Assembly (NCBI GenBank): GCA_022825665.1
Contig: JAJDWI010000035.1
Coordinates: forward strand, 1-57,304
Length of the DNA: 57,304 nucleotides
Direction: 5' to 3'
Origin: Candidatus Poribacteria bacterium
GTDB taxonomy: Bacteria; Poribacteria; WGA-4E; WGA-3G
Part shown: positions 170 through 50,152 of the stretch, one piece after another
Layout of the letters: every line of letters begins with the position of its first letter
Numbering within the stretch: position 1 is the stretch's first letter
Translations under genes and position numbers: made by a program
Notes under the pieces: model-generated
What the model saw: only the letters and a program-made list of their open reading frames with translations
The model's database searches: none
What the model was told of the DNA's origin: nothing

Positions 170-1222
170 TTACATAGAGGCAGCGTGAGGATGCATCATT
201 ATTTTCATACCCTTTCGGGATTCCATAGCCTCAAAGGCTTGGTCAATTTCAACAAGTGGGAAATGATGGGTAATTAGCGGTTGAACACGAACTAAACCTT
301 TTTCAAGAAGTTTCACAGCCAATTCGTGATGACGGGGAACGCACCCGTGGGAACCTGTAACGAAACATTCTTTATAATGGATAGTATTGGAGAGAACGCT
401 CATCGGACGCATGGTCTTTGGCAATCCACCGAACAGGTTGACATAACCTCGGTGTGCGACCATTTCGACCCCTTGTTCATGTGCTTCAACAGAGCCGCAA
501 GTTGTAACCACTATATCCGGTCCCTCACCGTCGGTTTCTTCAAGACAACGTTCCACAACATCCTCTTCTTCAGAGGCGATATAAACATCTGCTTCGTAAA
601 ACTTGGCAATCTCCATACGCAGTTTGCTACGTTGAATGCCAATAACTTTAGTCGCACCCATGACACGGGCAAGGTCAATCATCATGCAACCAATCGGTCC
701 TAATCCGATAATCACAACACTCTTACCGAGAGACATATTTACCAATTCAAGTCCGTTGATGGCACAGGCAAGGGGTTCAGCAAGGGCAGCTTCATCAAAA
801 CTAAGACTTTCTCCAAACGGTGTAACAGGTCCTTCTTCCAAAACCAAGCGAGGTAGTTTCATGTATTGTGCAAATGCACCCGGAATTTGGTAACCAATAG
901 CGTAATTGATATGACAGTTGTTACCATAACCGTTCCGACACCAATGACATTGTCCACACGGCACATCAGCACCGATTGAGACACGGTCCCCTTCCTTAAC
1001 TCGCTTCACATTTTTTCCAACCTTGACTATCACACCCGAATTCTCATGACCGATAATCGTCGGTGGTTCAACACGGGGATTACCATGATGAAATATTCGC
1101 ACATCGGAACCACATATACTGACCGACTCAACTCGCATCAATGCCGAGTCGTCGTCAATTTCAGGTTCAGGAACATCTTGCACATTGAAATTTTCAAGGC
1201 TTTCAAGTATAGCCGCTATCAT
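170..1222 (-). CDS. Zinc-dependent medium-chain alcohol/sugar dehydrogenase
   Basis: This 350-residue protein is a medium-chain dehydrogenase/reductase of the threonine/sorbitol dehydrogenase branch, expected to oxidise a secondary alcohol of a polyol or sugar with NAD(P). Visible signatures are the catalytic-zinc Cys in CGSD (about residue 37), the GHE motif (about 58), the four-Cys structural zinc lobe PCGQCHWCRNGYGNNC (about 89-104) and the Rossmann loop GLGPIG (about 173). Length is normal for the family. The ATG at 1222 follows an AAAGGGA ribosome site. It lies 40 nt downstream of a second dehydrogenase and an epimerase, so it is probably co-transcribed with them. The substrate cannot be read from sequence. 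Confidence 0.88.
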   Translation of the reverse strand: MIAAILESLENFNVQDVPEPEIDDDSALMRVESVSICGSDVRIFHHGNPRVEPPTIIGHENSGVIVKVGKNVKRVKEGDRVSIGADVPCGQCHWCRNGYGNNCHINYAIGYQIPGAFAQYMKLPRLVLEEGPVTPFGESLSFDEAALAEPLACAINGLELVNMSLGKSVVIIGLGPIGCMMIDLARVMGATKVIGIQRSKLRMEIAKFYEADVYIASEEEDVVERCLEETDGEGPDIVVTTCGSVEAHEQGVEMVAHRGYVNLFGGLPKTMRPMSVLSNTIHYKECFVTGSHGCVPRHHELAVKLLEKGLVRVQPLITHHFPLVEIDQAFEAMESRKGMKIMMHPHAASM

Positions 1223-1262
1223 ATTTCCCTTTATTATTTATGGGGCAAACCCAATTAATTAT

Positions 1263-2327
1263 CTACGATGGATGTATAAGCACTTTCGCATAAAATTCGT
1301 TTTTGTCCTTCATCATGTTTAGAACATCTGTACCATCTATCAACGGAACCTTGTGTGTAATCAGTGGAAATAGGTCTAATGTGCCAGAAGCCATAGCTTG
1401 TAGCACTGTCCGCCAATCGTCGTCGTTACCAGATACACTGTAGTCAGAATTCCACGTTCCCAACAGACTCACTTCACGCCGCATCAATTGCGAAATAAGC
1501 GATGCCGGAAGCGTTACATCCGCAGCAGGATTTCCAAGTAAAACCACACTACCATCTCGTCGAACACTTCCTAACGCATAGAGGTAAGTATCTGGAACAC
1601 CCGCTGCTTCAATACAAACATGTGCGCCATTTCCACCAGTCCGTCTATTCGTTACCTCAATAGGTTCTTCTATTGCACTGTTATAGACGTTTTCAAATCC
1701 TAAACGTTGTGCTAATTTTAGTTTTTCAGGAACAATGTCAAACAGCAACACTTGTGCTGCACCAATTATCCTTGTCCACATTGCCACCATTAACCCTATA
1801 GGACCAGCACCGAAGATAGCAACCGTTTTACCGACAAGAGATTCTTTTACCCGTCGTATTGCATGGAGTGCGACAGCAGCGGGTTCTGTCTGTGCCGCTT
1901 CTTCTAAAGTCACACCATCTGGTACACGTATGATATTTTCTTTTGGGGCAACAACATATTCTGCAAATGCACCATCACTTCGTGAACCGAGATAGTCATA
2001 GTCGTTGCATTGGACGTATTTTCCATTCTCACACGCCGCACATTTTCCACACCATATCAACGGAAAAACTACAACATTATCTCCTGGTGTAAATTCATCA
2101 ACATCTGCTCCACACTGGTCTATAGTTCCAGCAAATTCGTGTCCGCAGACTGTTGGAAAACTGTAAGTGCCTTTTGAAAATATCCTTGGGATGTCAGAAC
2201 CACAAACACCACAGAAACCGATTCGAACTCGGACTTGTCCTTCAGAGATGTTGGGGATTGGTATATGTGCTAACCTTAAATCTCCGACACCATGCAGCAC
2301 AAGTGCCTCCATCAAACCGTTATCCAT
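1263..2327 (-). CDS. Second zinc-dependent sugar-alcohol dehydrogenase
   Basis: A 354-residue medium-chain dehydrogenase, related to but clearly distinct from its neighbour. It shows CGVCGSD (catalytic zinc Cys), CGHEFAG, the four-Cys lobe CGKCAACENGKYVQC and the nucleotide loop GAGPIG. It resembles the galactitol-1-phosphate / L-iditol dehydrogenase group. The ATG at 2327 shares its A with the TGA stop of the epimerase gene upstream; a GTG one codon earlier is also possible, but AGAGGGG is better spaced for the ATG. The tight coupling to the epimerase suggests oxidation of a sugar or sugar phosphate feeding into pentose-phosphate chemistry. That pathway role is inferred. Confidence 0.87.
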   Translation of the reverse strand: MDNGLMEALVLHGVGDLRLAHIPIPNISEGQVRVRIGFCGVCGSDIPRIFSKGTYSFPTVCGHEFAGTIDQCGADVDEFTPGDNVVVFPLIWCGKCAACENGKYVQCNDYDYLGSRSDGAFAEYVVAPKENIIRVPDGVTLEEAAQTEPAAVALHAIRRVKESLVGKTVAIFGAGPIGLMVAMWTRIIGAAQVLLFDIVPEKLKLAQRLGFENVYNSAIEEPIEVTNRRTGGNGAHVCIEAAGVPDTYLYALGSVRRDGSVVLLGNPAADVTLPASLISQLMRREVSLLGTWNSDYSVSGNDDDWRTVLQAMASGTLDLFPLITHKVPLIDGTDVLNMMKDKNEFYAKVLIHPS

Positions 2328-11731: not shown

Positions 11732-12790
11732 ATGGCTAAAATAAAACTCGGAATAATTGGTGCTGGTGGTATTGTCTGCAGAATGCATCTACCTGATTTG
11801 AAAAGAGGAGACGATTTTGATGTAGAGGTTATCGGTGGTAGACGTGAACACCGACTTAAGCATCAATGCAATGAATTTGAAATTCCACGTTGGACACAAG
11901 ATTACGATGCCATCATTGCTGACGATACACTGGACGCTATTCTCGTTGGCACACCCCATCCCTTACATGTTCCGTGGGGTGTCAAAGCATTGGAAGCAGG
12001 TAAACATGTGTTGATGCAAAAACCGTTATGTGGCGAAATGGATGAAGCAAATCAATTCGTTGATGTTGCCCAAGCAAGCGGCAAAACAGTGATGTGTCTC
12101 CCACACTTCAATGCAGGTATCTATAAAGTCCGACAACTAATCGCTGAAAATGCCATCGGACGTGTATCTGGTGCAAGAATGCGGCATAGCCACGGCGGTC
12201 CAGAGGTCTACTATGCCGAAATCAAAGACATATTCGGTGAAACTGATGACGACTTATGGTTTTTTGACGCAAAACAAGCAAGCGTCGGTGCACTCTTTGA
12301 TATGGGAGTCTATGCTGTCTCAGGACTCGTTGCAATGCTCAGAACTTTCAAACGCGTAACAGGTTTCGTTTCAACCTTTGACAAACCGACAGAATTAGAA
12401 GATGTCGCAACACTCGTGCTTGAGATGGAATCGGGTGGAATTGTAACAGCTGAAACAAGTTGGTGTGACCCAGCACGAACAGGTGAATCCAGTATCCACG
12501 GTACTGCTGGTAAGTTCACAATGCCCGGAAAAGATGGCGCGGCACTAACACAATACACACCCACCTCCTATACACGTGAACATGCACCTGTTGACACCAA
12601 AGCTATTGACTGCGGCGATGTTGCACCGAGTGGCATGCACGCACATTTTGCAGAGCATATCCGCGCAGGCACACAACCGCCACTCTCCAATGTCTACACA
12701 GCACGGCATGTTACCGAGATTTTACTCGCTGGATTAAAATCATCAGAAACAGGTGCCGCTGTTGAACTAACCTCAGTAGCAGATAAGTAA
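11732..12790 (+). CDS. Gfo/Idh/MocA family NAD(P)-dependent oxidoreductase
   Basis: A 352-residue oxidoreductase. The N-terminal Rossmann fold opens with KLGIIGAGGIVCRMHLP, and the cofactor/substrate segment reads GKHVLMQKPLCGEMDEA near residue 95. Here the usual E-K-P is Q-K-P: the catalytic Lys is kept but the preceding Glu is Gln. The C-terminal domain carries GALFDMGVYAVSGL and GGIVTAETSW. It is probably co-transcribed with the DUF1080 gene (16-nt gap) and likely oxidises a sugar, amino sugar or inositol derivative. The substrate is not predictable. Confidence 0.9.
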   Translation: MAKIKLGIIGAGGIVCRMHLPDLKRGDDFDVEVIGGRREHRLKHQCNEFEIPRWTQDYDAIIADDTLDAILVGTPHPLHVPWGVKALEAGKHVLMQKPLCGEMDEANQFVDVAQASGKTVMCLPHFNAGIYKVRQLIAENAIGRVSGARMRHSHGGPEVYYAEIKDIFGETDDDLWFFDAKQASVGALFDMGVYAVSGLVAMLRTFKRVTGFVSTFDKPTELEDVATLVLEMESGGIVTAETSWCDPARTGESSIHGTAGKFTMPGKDGAALTQYTPTSYTREHAPVDTKAIDCGDVAPSGMHAHFAEHIRAGTQPPLSNVYTARHVTEILLAGLKSSETGAAVELTSVADK

Positions 12791-12792
12791 AT

Positions 12793-12857
12793 TATAGTGA
12801 AATTCAAAAATATGTCCACACGCCATGGTAGGTACGGTTAGGAAACCGCACCTACCG
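12793..12857. repeat. REP palindrome with conserved left flank
   Basis: A 13-bp stem, GGTAGGTACGGTT (12827-12839) against AACCGCACCTACC (12844-12856), has one A-C mismatch and a four-base loop. The 30 bp upstream (TATAGTGAAATTCAAAAATATG followed by CACA, read with small variations) recurs at about 30690-30720 and more weakly at 49870-49900. The repeated unit is therefore longer than the hairpin alone. Confidence 0.8.
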
Positions 12858-13111
12858 TAACTTATACCAATTCTAATAATAATTGTTATCCTATTAGCAG
12901 TAACGTTCTTTTGTCAGAATCGCATCGGGTAAAGGTTTCCCCTCGTAGGAGCGGGGTTTCCTCGCCCGTTCTGTCAACTGAAAACTGAAACATATATCAA
13001 ACATATTGGATATATATTGTTATCAAACGCAATAACGCTACAAAACCACACTACCACCAAGTATAATATAACCCAACATCCAACACACAACCTACAAAAT
13101 GGAGGAACACA

Positions 13112-13180
13112 ATGACAAATCAACCAAAACACAATACCGAAAAAACAACTAAACGGTATGCTTTTAGTTGTTTTTTTTAA
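13112..13180 (+). CDS. Possible 22-residue peptide / leader ORF
   Basis: An ATG at 13112 follows GGAGGAACACA, a strong ribosome site, and encodes MTNQPKHNTEKTTKRYAFSC plus two Phe before TAA. The last ten codons lie inside a hairpin ending in eight T residues. TATAAT at 13062-13067 could be a -10 box, with no good -35. It could be a leader peptide, a truncated gene start or a short non-coding transcript. The dense set of signals around so short a frame is the only support. Confidence 0.35.
   Translation: MTNQPKHNTEKTTKRYAFSCFF
13141..13178 (+). terminator. Rho-independent-like terminator overlapping the small ORF
   Basis: AAAAACAACTAAA (13141-13153) pairs with TTTAGTTGTTTTT (13163-13175) around a 9-base loop and is followed by more T residues. 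The stem is 13 bp but contains only two G-C pairs, so termination may be weak. The arm sequence ACAACTAAA occurs twice more just downstream. Confidence 0.5.
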
Positions 13181-13381
13181 TTTCCTTCAATAAAAAAACT
13201 CCACTTAAACCCATACCACTACAGGATCTAGGACACTTAGCCAAAAATATAAAAAAAACAACTAAAAAACAACTAAATGAAGATTAAGTTGTTAAATCCG
13301 TAATTCCAATGATTGAAACAAACTTTTAGCAGATACAGATCAGAAGATACTTGGGAAGGAACGTGATTGTCAATACTCTTA

Positions 13382-13479
13382 TCCTGAAATCCTGCAAATC
13401 CTGGTTCAGACAACAAGCAATTCAGACAAATCCTGAAATCCTGCAAATCCTGGTTCAGACAACAAGCAATTCAGACAAA
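13382..13479. repeat. Perfect 49-bp tandem duplication of a miniature-element end
   Basis: Two identical 49-bp units (13382-13430 and 13431-13479) start with TCCTGAAATCCTGCAAATCC and contain GGTTCAGACAA. The unit matches the right end of the 145-bp element at 30833-30977. It directly abuts, in inverted order, a REP with its linker (13485-13530), the same neighbour relation as at 30784-30860. Confidence 0.85.
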
Positions 13480-13674
13480 CAAGAATCACTAAATTGACAC
13501 CTATGGTGCGGTTAGGAAGCCGAATCTACCTTAACTTAGATACTTACTTAAGACCTAAACTTGTAGCAAAACTTCAAAATAAAGAATTCATAAAATAAAC
13601 TTTTATCCAAGATCCTTTTGTTGAATAAATTTGGATTTTATTTATATTCACTTTCTATTTAGAGGGTATTTGAT

Positions 13675-15558
13675 ATGCCTACAAAAGTTTCTTTACAGGA
13701 CTATCTTGTAGAAAACCTAATCTCTTTACCTGATGGTGCGTTTGCCCGATTAGGAAAAGGGGGTATCACCGACGCTGCGCTCTCTCCCGATGAAAGTCTG
13801 ATTGCCGTGGCATCTCGTATCGGTATATGGTTGTACGATACACATACAGGCAACTTTTCTTCATTGATAGGTGTGTCGGAAACAGGTGTTGTCTCAGCAG
13901 TTGCCTTTTCTGCCGAGAATACCCAACTTGCTGTAGGTGATTGGGATGGAAAAATAACACTGTTGGATATTATTACCCAAGAGAAATTTGCGACTTTCAA
14001 TGGTAATGGTTTCGTGGAGTCGATTGTATTCTCTCCAGATGGCAAATATATGGCAGCAAGTTTTCAGCGTGGAGGCGTGATACTGTGGGACCTTACCACT
14101 GGGAAAAGCCATTTAACATTGTTTGCTGGTATGACTGTGAGTGCAGTAACATTCTCCGCAGATAGCCAGATTCTCACAACTGTAAGTCGGGACATTCCTG
14201 ATTTTGTTGATACTGTTGAACGGATGGATAGGATACAGCACGATGAAGTGATAGTTACACAGTGGGACGTTGCCACTGGAAAACTTTGCCGGAGTTTTCC
14301 ATCAAAACAGGTCAGTTTCATTACTTCTACACCAAACGGGCAACTTTTGGGAGCAGACAGTCGAGATGGAGAAGTCAGTATATGGCGGCTTGATACTGCC
14401 AAAGAAGTAACAAGTTTCTCACTTCCGGAATATGTTCATTTGATTGGATATTCAGTTAACAATCGGCTCCTTTTGCTAAGCGGTGATGTATTCACGATTT
14501 GGAGTGATACCGAACGAAAGGATTTACTTCTAAATCAGTCAAACAGCGGAGAGGGATGGCTTGTTACTTTTACCCCCGAGACAAAACACCTTGTAAGTTT
14601 AGACAGAAGCGGTACCCTAAGACGTTGGGATATTGGAAGCGATCGAAGGATTCGGTTGCTTGAAAAGGATATAAGGGATGGAACAGCTGATGTTTTGTTT
14701 CGAGGGCACACACTCACTTGTTCTTCCGATGAACGTCCCCTTGTAACGACTGTTTTAGCAAGCAGTAGCATGGGGGTCGTAATGCACAATGAGGAAGTCA
14801 ACGTGACTTTCACCCCAGAAATCACCACTACAGTACTACCTGTAAATTCAGCCGCTGTGTCACCTGATCTCACGTTATTAGCAACTGGAGGGATGTTGGA
14901 CAAAACCATAACTCTCTGGAATGTAGAAACAGGGGAGTCGATTCGGGTTATGACAGGACACACGGGTGAAGTAAATGATCTCGCGTTTTCTCCTGATGGA
15001 AAGCATCTGGTAAGCGGCGGGGCGCGCGCATGGGAGCATGATGAAGATGGAAGCAAATACCGTTCTGCTAAAGCATCTGTATACATGGATATAGATGGTA
15101 AGATTGATTATTTTTACTTAGGTGAAAATGGTCACAGGGATACCATTGCCAAAATCTGGGAAGTCGCGACGGGAGAATGTATAATGACACTTGAGAACCA
15201 AGGATGGATGAACCGAATTGCGTTTTCTGGTGACGGGAAACGTCTCGTGACCTCGTCGGCGAATTACATAAACCTGTGGTGCACGAAGTCATGGAAAAAA
15301 CTTGCGACATTTGACACAGTAAAGATTGAATCCTTAGCGTTATCGTCGGATGGAGTTCTTCTTGCTATTGGCGGGACCTGGCCTGAGCAGCGTATTCAAA
15401 TCTGGAATGTAATCACCCAGACTCTTGTCGTTGAATTCTCTGGACATAAAAGTGATGTTGAATGTGTTGCCTTTTCACCCGATAGCACAACGTTAGCAAG
15501 TGGAGGCTTTGATGGAGTCATCTACTTATGGGATATGAAACCATACATCAATTCTTAA
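13675..15558 (+). CDS. Cytoplasmic WD40 beta-propeller protein, cassette copy 1
   Basis: A 627-residue protein built almost entirely of WD40 repeats (about 11 recognisable units such as VESIVFSPDGKYMAAS with VILWDLTTGK, and VECVAFSPDSTTLASGG with VIYLWDMKPY). There is no signal peptide or membrane segment, so it should act in the cytoplasm as a protein-binding scaffold, perhaps as one or two propellers. It opens PTKVSLQDYLVENLISLP, shared with the second copy at 16829. ATG 13675 has AGAGGG upstream. The sigma-like gene follows after 44 nt. The final 100 bp are nearly identical to the paralogue, suggesting recent duplication or gene conversion. A regulatory partnership with the sigma-like protein is inferred. 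Confidence 0.88.
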   Translation: MPTKVSLQDYLVENLISLPDGAFARLGKGGITDAALSPDESLIAVASRIGIWLYDTHTGNFSSLIGVSETGVVSAVAFSAENTQLAVGDWDGKITLLDIITQEKFATFNGNGFVESIVFSPDGKYMAASFQRGGVILWDLTTGKSHLTLFAGMTVSAVTFSADSQILTTVSRDIPDFVDTVERMDRIQHDEVIVTQWDVATGKLCRSFPSKQVSFITSTPNGQLLGADSRDGEVSIWRLDTAKEVTSFSLPEYVHLIGYSVNNRLLLLSGDVFTIWSDTERKDLLLNQSNSGEGWLVTFTPETKHLVSLDRSGTLRRWDIGSDRRIRLLEKDIRDGTADVLFRGHTLTCSSDERPLVTTVLASSSMGVVMHNEEVNVTFTPEITTTVLPVNSAAVSPDLTLLATGGMLDKTITLWNVETGESIRVMTGHTGEVNDLAFSPDGKHLVSGGARAWEHDEDGSKYRSAKASVYMDIDGKIDYFYLGENGHRDTIAKIWEVATGECIMTLENQGWMNRIAFSGDGKRLVTSSANYINLWCTKSWKKLATFDTVKIESLALSSDGVLLAIGGTWPEQRIQIWNVITQTLVVEFSGHKSDVECVAFSPDSTTLASGGFDGVIYLWDMKPYINS

Positions 15559-15602
15559 TGTATTGATTGACTTAATTCAGTTCAAGGATAAGGGGGTTGG
15601 TA

Positions 15603-16685
15603 GTGTCAAACATCTCAGATGAAAGACTGATAGTCGCTGCGGTAAAAAGTGATTGTGAGGCAGTAGAAGAACTAAAGACACGTATTAAACCCAGGGTATG
15701 TGATATTATCATAAAAGGCGCGCGTTCATATAAGGGAGATATGGATGTACTTGTAGATCATACGCTGGAAACGGTTATCAATTCGTTAGATACTTACCGA
15801 TTTAGAACTCCTTTTCATCCTTGGTTACGGATTCGAAGTATTAACACGGTTATTGATTATATGCGTCAACATGCTAATCCTATAGCTACAAATAATAAAC
15901 GTCTAAGTAGGAAATCTCCATCTAAAACAGAACGAGAATTAAGCAGAAGTTCGAGGTCAGAAATACATCTGCCATTGGAGAGAATTGATCTTGAGATCCG
16001 TTCGCTTATAAGTTTACTGAACCGATCTCTTGATATTCGCACAATCAACTCTTGTAGCGGACATCCAGATCAAAAAGCGTGGAAATCACAAAATATACGA
16101 AAAAGATATGCATGGAATCCACTAGGAGGGTGGATTAGTTTCGTTCCCACTGGAGACCCGCGTTGTGCTTTAGACTTCATTATTGGCATCCTCACAAGAT
16201 TAGATAATACTAATCGAGAATCACAAAAAGTCGATATATCTTTAAACAACGCAATTTATCGACGATATCAGCAAGTTATGGCAGATGCTTTGTTCTACTC
16301 CGGTATCCCAATTGTTATTGTAGAAGTCTATCTTCGTTTTTTTGTCTGTGTTCCGAAAAGGAGAGATTGTTTGGAAATATGGAAATATTTCATTACTGCC
16401 ATGAATGAGGCTTTGTTGAATGACAAGGAATTCACTACGAAAGGAAAGATCTGTAACCTTAACGATTCCAATATTAACACACCTGAAGCAGCAGCAAAGT
16501 GTTTACAACAAGTTTTGCATCAATTACCTTTCATCTTTAGTGCAAAATTCGATACAGACAGCACAGGATATCCGGGTATTCTTTTACGTACTAAGGCAGA
16601 TCTTGACTTGTTGAAACGATTTTCATCGTTAGCTAATTATATGCATAAACACCTTGACACCACAATGGGAACCACGCACGCGTGA
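15603..16685 (+). CDS. Sigma region-2-like protein with SCSGH domain, copy 1 (3' truncated)
   Basis: A 360-residue protein. The N terminus (SDERLIVAAVKSDCEAVEEL, then VDHTLETVINSLDTYRF and HPWLRIRSINTVIDYMRQH) matches ECF sigma factor region 2. No helix-turn-helix region 4 follows. From about residue 135 comes a conserved domain: LEIRSLISLLNRSLDIRT, NSCSGHPDQ, GGWISFVPTGDPRCALDFI and YLRFFVCVPKRRDCLEIWKY. GTG 15603 is chosen over TTG 15597 because AAGGGGG is six bases upstream and the GTG aligns with an ATG of the paralogue. The frame ends abnormally (TMGTTHA) owing to a deletion of about 92 nt; the lost C terminus is readable in another frame to 16764. Confidence 0.75.
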   Translation: MSNISDERLIVAAVKSDCEAVEELKTRIKPRVCDIIIKGARSYKGDMDVLVDHTLETVINSLDTYRFRTPFHPWLRIRSINTVIDYMRQHANPIATNNKRLSRKSPSKTERELSRSSRSEIHLPLERIDLEIRSLISLLNRSLDIRTINSCSGHPDQKAWKSQNIRKRYAWNPLGGWISFVPTGDPRCALDFIIGILTRLDNTNRESQKVDISLNNAIYRRYQQVMADALFYSGIPIVIVEVYLRFFVCVPKRRDCLEIWKYFITAMNEALLNDKEFTTKGKICNLNDSNINTPEAAAKCLQQVLHQLPFIFSAKFDTDSTGYPGILLRTKADLDLLKRFSSLANYMHKHLDTTMGTTHA

Positions 16686-16764
16686 AGACCACTTGAAAAT
16701 ATGGAAATTACTTGAGAACACAGTAGCAGAGCAACTTGAACATGAAGGAGTTAACACTGCCTGA
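16657..16764 (+). pseudogene. Out-of-frame remnant of the sigma-like protein C terminus
   Basis: The frame beginning at 16657 reads TPQWEPRTREDHLKIWKLLE, then NTVAEQLEHEGVNTA and TGA at 16762-16764. This matches the last 35 or so residues of the paralogue at 18721-19917 (TPQWEPRTREDHLKIWKLLE, AVTEQLESEG). About 92 nt corresponding to FDIQQN through PHLL of the paralogue are missing just before it, which shifts the frame. Confidence 0.85.
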
Positions 16765-16828
16765 ACAAACTATTCAGCGGATTGGGATGAAACTTTATTC
16801 CCTTTCTAACTTAGAACCGAGGATTGAT

Positions 16829-18676
16829 ATGCATACAAAAGTCTCTTTACAGGACTATCCTAAAGAAAACCTAATCTCTTTACCACCTGAAGCGTTGGCG
16901 CGATTTGGTAGGGGTAGTGTATCTGCTACTGCCGTCTCTCCCGATGGGAATATGATCGCGGTAGCATCTCGTATCGGTGTGTGGCTCTATAATGCACATA
17001 CTGAGGATTTAATCAGGTTAATCGCTATAGAAGATACAGGTCTACTTTCAAAAGTTACATTTTCTCCTGATGGCACCAAAATCGTTACAGGAGATTGGGA
17101 TGGTATAGTATCACTATGGGATATTGCTACTGGAGCAGAACTTGCTACATTTACAAATACAGATTATGTGACTTCAGTCGCATTTTCTCCAAACGGAAAA
17201 CTCTTGTCGACTGCTACTCGGGATGGTAAAGCCACACTGTGGGAAATTGATACAGGATTAAAACGTTGGACGATTTCACACAAAGACCTTGTGTCTTCAG
17301 TTGTTTTTTCTCCAGATGGTTTACTTTTAGCAACCGGTAGTTGGGATAGCACAGCAAATTTCTGGGATGTTGAAACTGGTAAAAATCGAAGATGTTTTAC
17401 CCATCAGAAGGAGGAGGTAAATATCTCATTTGACTCAGGACATGTTGAAACTTTTAATCATCGTGGAATCAATTGTATCGCCTTTTCTCCAAATGGACAA
17501 TGTTTTGCCACTGGTGATCGTGTCGCAGATAACGGTTATACGACATTGTGGGATGTTGAAAGTGGGGTGGCATTGTGGGATTTTACCCATGTGAAATCTG
17601 CAACATCTATTACTTTCTCAACAGACAATAGGTATATGGCAACTCGTTTTTCCGGTGGAGACACTGATGTGCGTTGTATTACTGATGGCACATCTGCAAC
17701 ATATCAAGAAGGGAAATGGGACATAGATAAAAAGAAAGCACCTTCAATTCACCCACGTGGACTATACGGTTGGCTTGTCAGTTTTTCACCGGATGGGAAG
17801 CACTTAGCTGCCTTAAATCAAGGTGCTTCCCTTAAGATATGGGATGTTAAATCTGGGACAAACATTAAGACAATTAATCAGGATCTTATAGATGCTAAAG
17901 ATCTAACATTTTCACCCGATGGACGCTGGGTTGGGGTGAGTCGTACCTCAAAGAAAGCCACATTTTGGAAAGAACAGGAACAACATATTGATTTTCCACA
18001 TGAAGACATTATATCCACAGCTGTTTCACCTGATATACAGTTTGTAGCAACAGGTGGTAGAAAGAAAAAAGTCTACTTATGGGATAGAGTAACACAAAAA
18101 CTGTTAAATACACTCTCCGGTCATACAGGACCAATTATTCACCTTGCATTCTCTTCTGATAGCAAACACTTAGTAAGTACAGGTGGTCGAGAATTTGAAA
18201 TACAACGATTAGAAAATGGAGTGGAAATTATGATAACGCAGGATGATTGTCATATAGATCAAACTGCAAGAGTCTGGAATCTCAAAACAGGTTTTGAGAT
18301 TGTTACACTAAACCATTCGTCATCTGTCAAACATGTTGCCTTCTCACCAAAAAATACTTATCTTGCAACAACCAACGGACAAGAAGTCTATTTGTGGGAT
18401 ACAAAGATGTGGCAGAAAAAAGTGACCTTTGAAACAGTTGAGGTAGAGTCGTTTGTGTTTTCACCGGATGACTCACTGTTAGCTGTAGGCGGATCGTGGC
18501 AAGAACAAAAGATTCAGATATGGAATGTGAAGACTGCCCAGCTTGTTGTAGAATTCTCTGGACATAAAAGTGATGTTGAAGATCTTGCCTTTTCACCGGA
18601 TGGCACACTATTAGCAAGCGGAGGCTTTGATGGAGTCATCTACTTATGGGATATGAGACCATACATCAATTCTTAA
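16829..18676 (+). CDS. Cytoplasmic WD40 beta-propeller protein, cassette copy 2
   Basis: A 615-residue paralogue of the WD40 protein at 13675, with the same opening HTKVSLQDYPKENLISLP, the same order of about 11 WD repeats and the same ending GGFDGVIYLWDMRPYINS. The ATG at 16829 (GAGGAT six bases upstream) is preferred: the open frame extends back to 16736, but that extension lies over the out-of-frame remnant of the previous gene and has no counterpart in copy 1. Repeats of the form FSPDGTKIVTGDWDGIVSLW are clearer here than in copy 1. No export signal is present. The second sigma-like gene follows after 44 nt. Confidence 0.88.
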   Translation: MHTKVSLQDYPKENLISLPPEALARFGRGSVSATAVSPDGNMIAVASRIGVWLYNAHTEDLIRLIAIEDTGLLSKVTFSPDGTKIVTGDWDGIVSLWDIATGAELATFTNTDYVTSVAFSPNGKLLSTATRDGKATLWEIDTGLKRWTISHKDLVSSVVFSPDGLLLATGSWDSTANFWDVETGKNRRCFTHQKEEVNISFDSGHVETFNHRGINCIAFSPNGQCFATGDRVADNGYTTLWDVESGVALWDFTHVKSATSITFSTDNRYMATRFSGGDTDVRCITDGTSATYQEGKWDIDKKKAPSIHPRGLYGWLVSFSPDGKHLAALNQGASLKIWDVKSGTNIKTINQDLIDAKDLTFSPDGRWVGVSRTSKKATFWKEQEQHIDFPHEDIISTAVSPDIQFVATGGRKKKVYLWDRVTQKLLNTLSGHTGPIIHLAFSSDSKHLVSTGGREFEIQRLENGVEIMITQDDCHIDQTARVWNLKTGFEIVTLNHSSSVKHVAFSPKNTYLATTNGQEVYLWDTKMWQKKVTFETVEVESFVFSPDDSLLAVGGSWQEQKIQIWNVKTAQLVVEFSGHKSDVEDLAFSPDGTLLASGGFDGVIYLWDMRPYINS

Positions 18677-18720
18677 TATGTGTGCTAATTTAATTCAGTT
18701 CAAGATAAAAGGAGGATTAA

Positions 18721-19917
18721 ATGATGTCAAACATTTCTGACGAAAGATTGATAGTCGCAGCGGTGAAAGACGGTGATTCAGAGGCATTAGAAGAATTAAA
18801 AAAACGGGCAGTTTCAGGAGAACATGGGATACGCGCTGTCCTCAAAAGAAAGCAGTGGCAGTTTTCTGACGAAGAAATAAATTGTGTTGAAGAAAAAATC
18901 CTTGAACGGATATCCGATAATTTACCTTCATACAATTTCAGTGTTTCCTTTCAATCATGGGTCTTTCGTAATACTATCAACCAAGCAATACAACATCAAT
19001 ATGAAAATGCTAAGGAAACACTTGATAATAAATGTCAAGAGGAGATAGATCAATCAAAAGTTCAACCCATAACAAAAGATTTACCCATAATGCCGATTGA
19101 CTTTGAGATTCGTCCGCTTGTAGGTTTGCTGAATCAATCACCTGCCATAAAAACATTCACTTCCTGTAGTGGACATCCAGATCAGCAGGTGTGGGAAGGA
19201 AAACGTGGGTGGGTTCAGCATGGTGGATGGATTGGGATTAGTCCAACTGGGGATCCAAGTAGGGCATTGGATTTCCTTGTTAGTTTGCTGTCAAGATTAG
19301 ATAACACCCATTCTATAAATACAACCGAAACCATTTCTAACCTATACAAGCAAGCAGACGCTGAAACGTTGTTTTGTTCAAGTGGACCTATTGCAATTGT
19401 AAAGGTATCTTTACGCTTTTTTGTTTCTCATCATGAAGTAGAAAAATGTATACAAATTTGGAAACAATTCATCGCTTGCCTAAAAGAGTTGATACCAGAT
19501 TACGATGAACTTACTACTGAAGTTAACACACCAGTGATGGTAGCACAATGTATACAAAAAGCACTTCATCTGACCCCTTTTGTATATTATGCAAAGCTTG
19601 AGACAAGCAGTGATGGAAAACCCTGTATTGTATTAAAAACAATAGCAGATCTCCCTTTATTAAAATGGTTTCTGGTGCTATCACAACTGCTGCATGAACA
19701 CTTTGATATACAACAGAATACCCCATTTACAACGAAGTGGAGTTTTGAATTGCGACCATTTCTAAACCAAGAATTGATACCCTTACCACACCTGTTAACT
19801 CCCCAGTGGGAACCCCGTACACGTGAAGACCACCTAAAAATTTGGAAACTACTTGAGTTAGCAGTTACTGAACAGCTTGAATCTGAAGGTATTACGGTAA
19901 AAACTGATAATAATTAG
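18721..19917 (+). CDS. Sigma region-2-like protein with SCSGH domain, copy 2 (full length)
   Basis: A 398-residue protein, apparently the intact form. Residues 1-95 look like ECF sigma region 2: SDERLIVAAVKDGDSEALEE, the acidic INCVEEKILERISDNLPSY and FQSWVFRNTINQAIQHQYEN. Region 4 is not visible. Next comes the conserved domain: DFEIRPLVGLLNQSPAIKT, FTSCSGHPDQ, QHGGWIGISPTGDPSRALDF and LLSRLDNT. Two later segments repeat a theme, CIQIWKQFIACLKELIPD and HLKIWKLLELAVTEQLES, suggesting a duplicated fold. AAAGGAGG precedes the ATG by five bases. It could be an unusual sigma or anti-sigma-like regulator tuned by the WD40 partner. Naming it a sigma factor would be premature. Confidence 0.78.
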   Translation: MMSNISDERLIVAAVKDGDSEALEELKKRAVSGEHGIRAVLKRKQWQFSDEEINCVEEKILERISDNLPSYNFSVSFQSWVFRNTINQAIQHQYENAKETLDNKCQEEIDQSKVQPITKDLPIMPIDFEIRPLVGLLNQSPAIKTFTSCSGHPDQQVWEGKRGWVQHGGWIGISPTGDPSRALDFLVSLLSRLDNTHSINTTETISNLYKQADAETLFCSSGPIAIVKVSLRFFVSHHEVEKCIQIWKQFIACLKELIPDYDELTTEVNTPVMVAQCIQKALHLTPFVYYAKLETSSDGKPCIVLKTIADLPLLKWFLVLSQLLHEHFDIQQNTPFTTKWSFELRPFLNQELIPLPHLLTPQWEPRTREDHLKIWKLLELAVTEQLESEGITVKTDNN

Positions 19918-19946
19918 GCGGTATCCTTATGATTATTTCTGGCAAC

Positions 19947-19996
19947 AAAAAAGGCATTTTCATGTATACGTTAATCCGCACTTACATGAAAATGCC
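19947..19996 (-). terminator. Strong Rho-independent terminator of the DUF5069 gene
   Basis: A perfect 14-bp stem, GGCATTTTCATGTA (19953-19966) with TACATGAAAATGCC (19983-19996), has a 16-base loop. On the minus strand it is followed by TTTTTTG, and it lies 16 nt after the stop of the minus-strand gene at 20012. It may also stop transcription arriving from the sigma-like gene on the plus strand. Confidence 0.85.
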
Positions 19997-20011
19997 ATAA
20001 CATTTATAACA

Positions 20012-20467
20012 TTAATCTAAACTTGCATGAAATTCATACCAATCATCAAGGTTGTTAAGGTTGACAGCATCTAATATCGAGCCATCGTCTTCAATGCCAC
20101 TTGCACCAAGAATACTTGTGCGTGTATCGTCATCGTGATTGTACCCTTCAATAGCGGCATTCAATTCAGCGACAGCATCAGCATCAAGACTACCACCTTT
20201 CTGTTCTAAAACCCATGCCTCAAATTGAGGATAGGTAGGTGAGTTATCTCTGATATATGCAAGTGTTGCATCTTTATCAAGTCCAAGTCCATCCAACACC
20301 ATCTGATCATACCCGGCTCCACATGCAGGATAATCTGCGTGAAGGACACCCTTAGCATCCATCAATACCTTAGACCAGAAACGCGGTAGATGCAATACAC
20401 CGAGAGGACCTGAGACCCCAGAACTAATCGTCGGGATCATAGCTGTTTTCTTTTTCCTTCCAAACAT
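20012..20467 (-). CDS. DUF5069 family protein
   Basis: A 151-residue soluble protein with the DUF5069 pattern: LHLPRFWSKVLMDAKGVLHA, the conserved CGAGYDQMVLDGLGLD, and PTYPQFEAWVLEQKGG. The family has no established function. The ATG at 20467 is set by a near-perfect AAGGAGG about seven bases upstream; the open frame continues to 20527 but without family similarity. It lies alone between the sigma-like gene, with which it converges, and the divergent UPF0182 gene, and ends in a clear terminator. Confidence 0.85.
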   Translation of the reverse strand: MFGRKKKTAMIPTISSGVSGPLGVLHLPRFWSKVLMDAKGVLHADYPACGAGYDQMVLDGLGLDKDATLAYIRDNSPTYPQFEAWVLEQKGGSLDADAVAELNAAIEGYNHDDDTRTSILGASGIEDDGSILDAVNLNNLDDWYEFHASLD

Positions 20468-20596
20468 AACAAGCCTCCTTGCTATTATGGATGAGTAAAA
20501 GTTATTATTTGCAAGTACTTCTTGCAATTTAGGGTATTATAGCAAAATATACAAAATTGAAAAACAATAAATTCAAAAGTTCAAAAGTTGATTGAC

Positions 20597-30723: not shown

Positions 30724-30805
30724 GGTAGGTACGGTTTCATGAAGATTAAAAAATAATTCGGTAATTTGGACCTAAACCCGGTAGGTTCGGTTTCCTAACC
30801 GCACC
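30724..30805. repeat. REP split by half of a nested palindromic element
   Basis: The left half of a REP (GGTAGGTACGGTTTC, 30724-30738) is cut at its tip by ATGAAGATTAAAAAATAATT and the following bases to 30778. This is the arm of the element also seen at 45319-45431. A complete REP (30781-30805) follows. The right arm and the right half of the outer REP are missing. Confidence 0.75.
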
Positions 30806-30832
30806 ATAAACGTCAATTTAGTGATTCTTACC

Positions 30833-30977
30833 TGTCTGAACCAGGGTTTTCAGGATAAGAGATTTATATGCCAATATTCCTTTGCAAAAGATGGCCCTTC
30901 ATCCTGGACAACGGGATATATACTCACAAACTCCTAATCCTGGAAATCCTGAAATCCTGAAAATCCTGGTTCAGACA
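30833..30977. mobile_element. 145-bp MITE with 25-bp terminal inverted repeats
   Basis: The element starts TGTCTGAACCAGGG and ends CCTGGTTCAGACA. The first and last 25 bases are inverted repeats with about one mismatch. The interior has no coding potential. A second copy, running off the window edge, starts at 57183, and single ends occur at 13382-13479, 35350-35372 and 39903-39945. It is non-autonomous; no matching transposase is in the window. Confidence 0.8.
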
Positions 30978-39902: not shown

Positions 39903-39945
39903 AATCCTGAAAATCCTATAATCCTGAAAATCCTGGTTCAGACAA
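39903..39945. repeat. Isolated MITE right end with internal duplication
   Basis: The motif ATAATCCTGAAAATCCT occurs twice in a row and is followed by GGTTCAGACA, matching the right end of the 145-bp element at 30833-30977. The left end is absent here. Confidence 0.75.
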
Positions 39946-49683: not shown

Positions 49684-50152
49684 TGTCCTTCTATATTTAT
49701 TCTATGGTCTAATAATTACAACTTGTGTTAGTTATGTGATAGTCAGGCTAATTTTAACAACTGTTCATCTTCTGTAGGAGCGATCTCCGAATCGCGACCT
49801 GTTAGTAGTCGCGCAACTCATTACGTCTCTTACATTTTCAGGAGCATTTTTGTTGTTAATATATGAATTATAGTAAAATTCAGATTTATTTATACACTAC
49901 GGTAGGTTCGGTTTCCTAACTGAACCATAAGCGTCAATTTTAGGAGGAGATGCGTTTGTAGTCGCGCAATTCATTGCGCCTCTTACATTTCATAGGGGCG
50001 AGGTCCCTCGCCCATCTTCACGCACTTCTTACATTCTCGTAGGTCGGAGCGAGCAAAAGCGATCTCCGACATAGACACTAAAGCCCCAGAGGCGCGAAAG
50101 GTGTATAATTTATAACTTGTTTGAATGTCCTACATTCTGCACACACAAAATA
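49684..50152. other. 469-bp intergenic region made of REP arrays
   Basis: It contains REP variants at 49774 and 49805, then a four-palindrome array (49902-50071) that repeats with the same linkers at 57011-57178. The last 80 bp before the stop at 50153 contain AAAGCCCCAGAGGCG and no gene. Confidence 0.8.
49902..50071. repeat. REP array A (four palindromes, conserved linkers)
   Basis: The order is: GTAGGTTCGGTTTCC stem (49902-49926); linker GCGTCAATTTTAGGAGGAGA; a GTAGTCGCGCAATTCATTGC stem (from 49958); a GGGGCGAGG stem (from 49993); linker TTCTTACATTCTC; and a GTAGGTCGGAGCGAGC stem (50039-50070). Array B at 57011-57178 has the same linkers and order, but its first palindrome has a different stem (GGGGCGAGG). 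Confidence 0.8.

What the first reader, a model, noticed from the sequence alone, without database searches (positions are those of the whole stretch)
13675..19917. Duplicated two-gene cassette: WD40 propeller plus sigma-region-2-like protein
Two WD40 genes (13675 and 16829) are each followed, after 44 nt, by a homologous gene starting with an ECF-sigma region-2-like segment. Order, spacing and parts of the intergenic DNA are conserved, so the pair was duplicated as a unit. WD40 proteins normally scaffold protein interactions. A fixed partnership with a sigma-like protein that lacks region 4 suggests an undescribed regulatory or signal module. Seen directly: order, homology, spacing. Inferred: a joint function.
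Basis: partly seen in the sequence, partly recalled or inferred. Interest (0 to 1): 0.82.

Follow-up and report, generated by a model that had tools for sequence, protein, structure and literature searches.

The report
Swappable WD40 genes beside sigma-like partner
In a Poribacteria genome a small optional DNA island holds two genes for propeller-shaped WD40 proteins, each followed by a gene for an odd protein made of a worn-down transcription-factor piece joined to a domain of unknown role; related genomes show that the propeller genes are exchanged while the partner stays, which looks like an undescribed regulation or recognition module.

Summary
The order WD40-S-WD40-S is real. S (the second gene) is a degenerate sigma region 2 (fold of E. 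coli sigmaE region 2) without region 4. Full-length S occurs in 14 of 85 genomes of the phylum, all in one family; in 11 of the 14 a WD40 gene is the immediate neighbour. Two claims need correction. (1) 'Duplicated as a unit' is not supported: S1 and S2 are not sisters, and in a sister genome WD1's orthologue lies downstream of S1's. WD40 bodies are exchanged between conserved gene ends, in one genome into an ECF sigma-WD40 fusion. (2) S has lost the residues by which sigma region 2 grips RNA polymerase, so it is probably not a working sigma factor. The cluster is an accessory insertion: the flanking genes are about 60-150 bp apart in 12 of 18 genomes of the genus. S1 here is truncated by a 116-nt deletion. 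Most likely (inferred), S is an auxiliary protein held by interchangeable WD40 propellers, related to the soluble ECF-WD40 fusion proteins of this phylum.

The parts
12791..20011 (.). Accessory island: DNA between the two conserved flanking genes (oxidoreductase 11732-12790 + and small gene 20012-20527 -); these genes lie about 60-150 bp apart in 12 of 18 genomes of the genus. Exact insertion ends not resolved.
13675..15558 (+). WD1, soluble WD40 propeller protein (627 aa); orthologue in G014 lies downstream, not upstream, of S1's orthologue
15559..15602 (+). 44-nt spacer WD1-S1 (to GTG 15603), conserved with G014 and partly with other loci
15597..16685 (+). S1: sigma-region-2-like N terminus plus TYW3-like domain, C terminus lost by a 116-nt deletion after 16656 (relative to L042); likely degraded copy
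16627..16761 (+). Region matching the S C-terminal end (S2 aa 350-394, 67% identity), now out of frame behind the deletion
16829..18676 (+). WD2, soluble WD40 propeller protein (ORF open from TTG 16736); 5' end nearly identical to the WD gene in the same slot of G014, body different
18677..18720 (+). 44-nt spacer WD2-S2
18721..19917 (+). S2, intact second gene (398 aa)
18721..19032 (+). S2 aa 1-104: sigma-region-2 fold without the core-RNAP contact residues
19096..19914 (+). S2 aa 126-398: alpha/beta domain with TYW3-like start
19162..19182 (+). SCSGHPD motif (S2 aa 148-154); SCSGHP invariant in the aligned family

Best explanation
An accessory island carrying exchangeable soluble WD40 propeller proteins, each co-encoded with an auxiliary protein S. 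S joins a sigma-region-2 fold that has lost its RNA-polymerase grip to an alpha/beta domain with a TYW3-like motif. The WD40 proteins resemble, and exchange bodies with, the WD40 halves of soluble ECF sigma-WD40 fusion proteins, whose genes occupy the same upstream slot in other genomes. Proposed mechanism (inferred): the propeller senses a ligand and docks a sigma-2-type domain, in cis in ECF-WD40 fusions and in trans on S; ligand binding then releases S or the ECF sigma. Swapping the propeller body changes the input while the output partner stays. Shown: composition, adjacency, WD40 swapping, loss of core-binding residues, island nature. Inferred: docking, ligand sensing and any activity of the TYW3-like domain.
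For: S next to WD40 in 11 of 14 genomes, with S relics still attached to WD40 genes in two more. Sigma-2 fold kept but the D403/Q406/E407 equivalents lost. The upstream slot holds either a plain WD40 or an ECF sigma (r2+r4)-WD40 protein. One gene (L048) is a recombinant of an ECF-WD40 5' part and a stand-alone WD40 body. The same S1 has different WD40 partners in front of it in two sister genomes. Purifying selection on S, dN/dS about 0.3.
Against: No interaction was tested; no complex prediction was possible. S is absent from most genomes that have ECF-WD40 genes and sits alone in three genomes. S also occurs next to WD40 proteins that already carry a sigma. Stand-alone S-N-terminal-like small proteins exist without WD40 neighbours.
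Confidence: 0.42

Rival explanations
1. A recognition/conflict module: variable WD40 receptors, diversified by recombination, control S as an effector whose TYW3-like domain binds or modifies RNA or another nucleic acid; the sigma-2 fold is only an adaptor.
For: Patchy distribution (14 of 85 genomes), accessory island with empty sites, WD40 body exchange, evolution several times faster than the flanking genes (dN/dS about 0.3 against 0.05), related SCSGHP proteins in viral families.
Against: No PADLOC match worth the name; no NTPase, nuclease or other standard effector identified beside S; dN/dS shows purifying, not diversifying, selection.
Confidence: 0.25
2. S is a decoy or co-regulator of the ECF-WD40 sigma factors: its worn sigma-2 domain competes for the surface that restrains the ECF sigma, without binding RNA polymerase itself.
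For: S lies directly behind ECF-WD40 genes in L040, L044, L046 and L047; sigma-2 fold without polymerase contacts.
Against: In the window's own island no ECF-WD40 gene is present, and the own genome keeps its ECF-WD40 array (L079) elsewhere and without S. Does not explain the large C-terminal domain.
Confidence: 0.18
3. One reading: S is a sigma-like transcription factor acting through region 2, steered by the WD40 scaffold.
For: Sigma region 2 by profile and fold; basic residues kept near the region 2.4 end in some members.
Against: No region 4; the region 2.2 residues for the core polymerase are lost in nearly all members.
Confidence: 0.08
4. Chance neighbours or decaying debris of a WD40 gene array, without joint function.
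For: About 60 WD40 frames in this genome; truncated S1; S relics in three genomes.
Against: S under purifying selection; adjacency and spacer kept across different WD40 subfamilies.
Confidence: 0.07

Closest known systems
ECF57-type ECF sigma factors with WD40-like C-terminal extensions (PMC8999054)
   Same: Sigma domain and WD40 propeller brought together, proposed control by protein interaction; ECF-WD40 fusions occupy the same slot upstream of S in other genomes
   Different: In the window the two parts are separate genes, S has no region 4, lacks the polymerase contacts and has an extra alpha/beta domain. Membership of the Poribacteria fusions in ECF57 was not tested.
TYW3/Taw3 tRNA methyltransferases (PF02676; PMC7761594)
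   Same: Helix, strand and SSCSG-type motif over about 30-40 residues
   Different: Rest of the domain does not match, Pfam cut-off not reached by the window proteins, no significant structural match; fused to a sigma-2 fold
Viral SCSGHP proteins (phrog_7413, phrog_21654; L108:4932-5384)
   Same: Same motif and spacing (IDxEI..L...N..SCSGHP)
   Different: Small stand-alone proteins of unknown function, no sigma part
Diversifying prokaryotic conflict systems with beta-propellers (PMC7159879, PMC8195603)
   Same: Propellers as variable sensors, patchy distribution; ECF sigma factors among linked components in some systems
   Different: No MoxR-vWA, STAND NTPase, caspase, TIR or EAD component identified with S

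Membership tests
ECF sigma factor | Sigma region 2 fold | tested here: met
   NCBIfam sigma model in 10 of 13 members, best 8.3e-12; 4lup TM-score 0.87 on the target
ECF sigma factor | Region 2.2 residues for core RNA polymerase (D403, Q406, E407 equivalents) | tested here: not met
   D, Q and E kept in 2, 2 and 1 of 16 S proteins; D/E, Q and D/E kept in 11, 7 and 11 of 11 ECF sequences
ECF sigma factor | Region 4 | tested here: not met
   No Pfam region 4 match in S; C-terminal part is alpha/beta
ECF57 (ECF with WD40 extension) | ECF sigma and WD40 in one chain | tested here: not met
   Separate genes in the window; met by neighbours of S in other genomes
ECF57 (ECF with WD40 extension) | Placement of the ECF domain in group ECF57 | not tested
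   The ECF group models were not available
TYW3/Taw3 | SSCSG-type motif | tested here: met
   SCSGHP invariant in the aligned S family; local TYW3 match in 13 of 13 members, best 4.9e-6
TYW3/Taw3 | Family score over the curated cut-off | tested here: not met
   Window proteins 17 bits against 27, about 35 residues matched; one relative reaches 27.4 bits
TYW3/Taw3 | SHS2 plus RAGNYA fold (PMC7761594) | tested here: inconclusive
   No significant PDB match and no TYW3 structure among the best 50 for the C-terminal model (pLDDT 79.8)
TYW3/Taw3 | SAM-dependent methylation of wyosine-type tRNA bases | not testable with these tools
   Needs biochemistry; wyosine is reported not to occur in Bacteria (abstract of PMC4417183)
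Known anti-phage defence system | Match of S to a PADLOC family | tested here: not met
   Best single match E 0.03 in one member of 13

The most novel reading that the evidence does not exclude
S is the founding member of an effector/adaptor family (sigma-2 docking domain plus TYW3-like domain) controlled by WD40 receptors that are swapped as cassettes by recombination at conserved gene ends: a bacterial recognition system with exchangeable propeller receptors that also plug into ECF sigma factors.
Probability: 0.2. Interest if true: 0.82.

Novelty: new variant of a known kind. Interest (0 to 1): 0.55.

Why it matters
If WD40 and S work together, the island shows how a bacterium can change the input of a regulatory or recognition protein by exchanging a propeller body while the output partner stays, with one propeller pool serving stand-alone proteins and ECF sigma fusions. 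It also suggests that part of the WD40 abundance of Poribacteria, so far discussed as eukaryote-like proteins for contact with the sponge host (PMC3909097), serves intracellular regulation.

Tried and rejected
Simple tandem duplication of a WD40-S unit: not supported by the S tree, the AU test (p 0.03) and the different gene order at the same site in G014. Split sigma (S supplying the sigma half of an ECF-WD40): weakened because S also follows WD40 proteins that carry a whole ECF sigma. TYW3 membership: only a motif-sized stretch is shared. Known defence system: no useful match. Fold of the C-terminal domain: two AlphaFold2 models and Foldseek searches of the PDB and of viral models gave no significant relative for it. 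tblastn of the S C-terminal domain in annotated phages: nothing significant. Origin of window 13310-13670 upstream of WD1: only short dispersed repeats found.

Full report
WHAT IS THERE. The window belongs to a Candidatus Poribacteria genome (named relatives). Between an oxidoreductase-like gene (11732-12790, +) and a small gene (20012-20527, -) lie four ORFs on the + strand: WD1 13675-15558, S1 15597/15603-16685, WD2 16829-18676 (open from 16736) and S2 18721-19917. WD1 and WD2 are WD40 propeller proteins. S1 and S2 are 43% identical. WD stop to S start is 44 nt in both pairs if S1 starts at GTG 15603. The WD 3' end, spacer and S 5' end are partly conserved in DNA across genomes.

THE SECOND GENE, N-TERMINAL PART. 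The single proteins score weakly against sigma region 2 (S1 E 0.013, S2 no hit). The family does better: 10 of 13 members match one NCBIfam sigma model, best 8.3e-12, and the best PDB hits of the family profile are ECF sigma region 2 (E 0.035 and weaker). An AlphaFold2 model of S2 (mean pLDDT 80.4, pTM 0.80) matches E. coli sigmaE region 2 (4lup, TM-score 0.87 normalised on the target, probability 1.00, E 0.024). At the positions equivalent to sigma70 D403, Q406 and E407 (contacts to the core polymerase, from established knowledge of region 2.2), 11 ECF sequences keep D/E, Q and D/E in 11, 7 and 11 cases, whereas 16 S proteins keep D, Q and E in 2, 2 and 1; the aromatic residue F/W of that helix is lost in all S. 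The fold core (F, W) is kept in 13 of 16. No region 4 was found.

THE SECOND GENE, C-TERMINAL PART. Residues 126-398 of S2 form an alpha/beta domain. Its start carries the SCSGHP motif and matches Pfam TYW3 in 13 of 13 members (best 4.9e-6), over about 30-40 residues only. The same motif links it to phage families (phrog_7413 in 12 of 13 members) and to a stand-alone viral protein. The model of this part (pLDDT 79.8) has no significant relative in the PDB. Kinship with TYW3 is therefore a motif-level lead, not a membership.

DISTRIBUTION AND NEIGHBOURS. A profile of the C-terminal domain finds full-length S in 14 of 85 genomes of the phylum, all in one family and two genera, plus relics. Immediate neighbours (contigs matched by length): WD40 directly upstream on the same strand in 10 genomes (G000, G006, G007, G014, G021, G026, G031, G062, G063, G082), directly downstream in one (G011), not adjacent in three (G005, G072, and G023 where a WD40 gene lies two genes on). 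This genome shows about 60 WD40 frames among the 150 best-scored repeats, so by chance adjacency would be a matter of a few percent; but the loci of one genus are syntenic and not independent. S relics keep the link: in G010 the first 27 codons 46 nt behind a WD40 gene, in G067 the last 38 codons behind a WD40 gene.

NOT A FROZEN CASSETTE. The S tree puts S1 with G014 and G005 proteins and S2 elsewhere; a clade of S1, its orthologue and S2 costs 14 log-likelihood units (AU p 0.03). WD1 and WD2 share a clade with WD40 genes of G014 and G011. At the same chromosomal site G014 reads WDx, S1', WD1': S1 is 96% identical in DNA, but a different WD40 gene stands in front of it and WD1's orthologue follows it. 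In the slot behind S1 the WD40 genes of the two genomes are nearly identical for about 18 codons and then part. The WD40 genes preceding S are not one clade (AU p 2e-48). In G067 (L048) one gene joins an ECF part 89% identical in DNA to L040's ECF-WD40 gene to a WD40 body 87-89% identical to stand-alone WD40 genes of L039, L040 and L043; the crossover lies in nt 653-686, at the start of the propeller. Exchange of whole propeller bodies, including into an ECF fusion, is thus directly visible. S1 has dS 0.044 to G014, where WD1 has 0.20 and two flanking genes have 0.20 and 0.41, which suggests recent exchange of S1 as well.

ECF-WD40 CONNECTION. Upstream of S in L040, L044, L046 and L047 the WD40 protein carries an ECF sigma at its N terminus (sequences; regions 2 and 4 over the Pfam cut-offs for L040), and no membrane segment was seen in the own-genome homologue L079_5264. 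The own genome holds a corresponding array without S (L079: WD, ECF-WD, WD, ECF). ECF sigma factors with WD40-like extensions are described as group ECF57 (PMC8999054); whether these proteins belong there was not tested. WD40 abundance in Poribacteria is known (PMC3909097). No paper held in the library mentions Poribacteria, WD40 and sigma factor together.

ISLAND. All 18 genomes of the genus keep both flanking genes. The interval is about 60-150 bp in 12 of them (in the five read: 63-142 bp, with a palindromic, terminator-like stem). It is 7.2 kb here, 6.8 kb in G014, 2.5 kb in G010 (WD40 plus S relic) and 1.5-1.8 kb in G016, G008 and G011, which hold a gene of another kind there. The cluster is therefore an accessory insertion at a repeatedly used site. 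S1 is truncated by a 116-nt deletion that removes part of the conserved C terminus; S2 is the intact copy.

MECHANISM. Best guess (0.42): WD40 propellers sense a ligand and hold sigma-2-type domains, in cis in ECF-WD40 fusions and in trans on S; S is an auxiliary output protein, not a sigma factor. Rivals: recognition/conflict module (0.25), decoy of ECF-WD40 sigma factors (0.18), true sigma-like factor (0.08), debris (0.07). Selection is purifying on S (dN/dS about 0.3) and on WD40 (0.15-0.34), against 0.05 for two flanking genes; this speaks against debris. Docking, ligand sensing and enzymatic activity are not shown.

VERDICT.

Noticed in passing
L115:2541-6566 (-) (G000:C128); relatives L146, L148, L150, L151: One open frame of 1341 aa joins an ECF sigma (regions 2 and 4), an FtsZ GTPase and a DNA polymerase III alpha (PHP, palm/NTPase and finger domains); Pfam confirms the same architecture in L150 and L151, ECF-FtsZ in L148 and ECF plus FtsZ GTPase domain in L146. 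Frames of 1365-1450 aa with the same ECF recur in about ten relatives. The genome has a separate FtsZ on C162. The ECF part is the one also fused to WD40. Very unusual and worth its own study.
   Followed up: partly
Own genome, e.g. L068:6965-16357, L069:3254-13941, L073:9761-15662, L074, L076, L086: About 25 frames of 700-1050 aa with an ECF sigma at the N terminus, most with one predicted membrane segment near residue 218-228 and a C-terminal propeller (WD40, or Sortilin/Vps10/BNR in those tested): apparently membrane-tethered sigma factors with a sensor ectodomain.
   Followed up: partly
L050:2733-3122, L052:7263-7637, L053:7806-8078: Small proteins (90-129 aa) made only of the S-type sigma-2 domain, without WD40 neighbours.
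   Followed up: partly
G016:C153, G008:C50, G011:C164, between the two genes that flank the island: The same intergenic site holds a different gene (ORF of about 357-371 aa, minus strand) in three genomes, so it is a repeatedly used insertion site.
   Followed up: partly
L109:246-1124 and 1060-1833 (-) (G053:C823): Two neighbouring proteins with weak TYW3-type starts (SCEGHD, CCDGHG) in a more distant member of the class.
   Followed up: no
window 13370-13540, 12831-12864, 30780-30977, 39911-39945, 49898-49940: Short dispersed intergenic repeats (about 30-60 nt, both orientations) found many times in this genome, also inside the island upstream of WD1.
   Followed up: no
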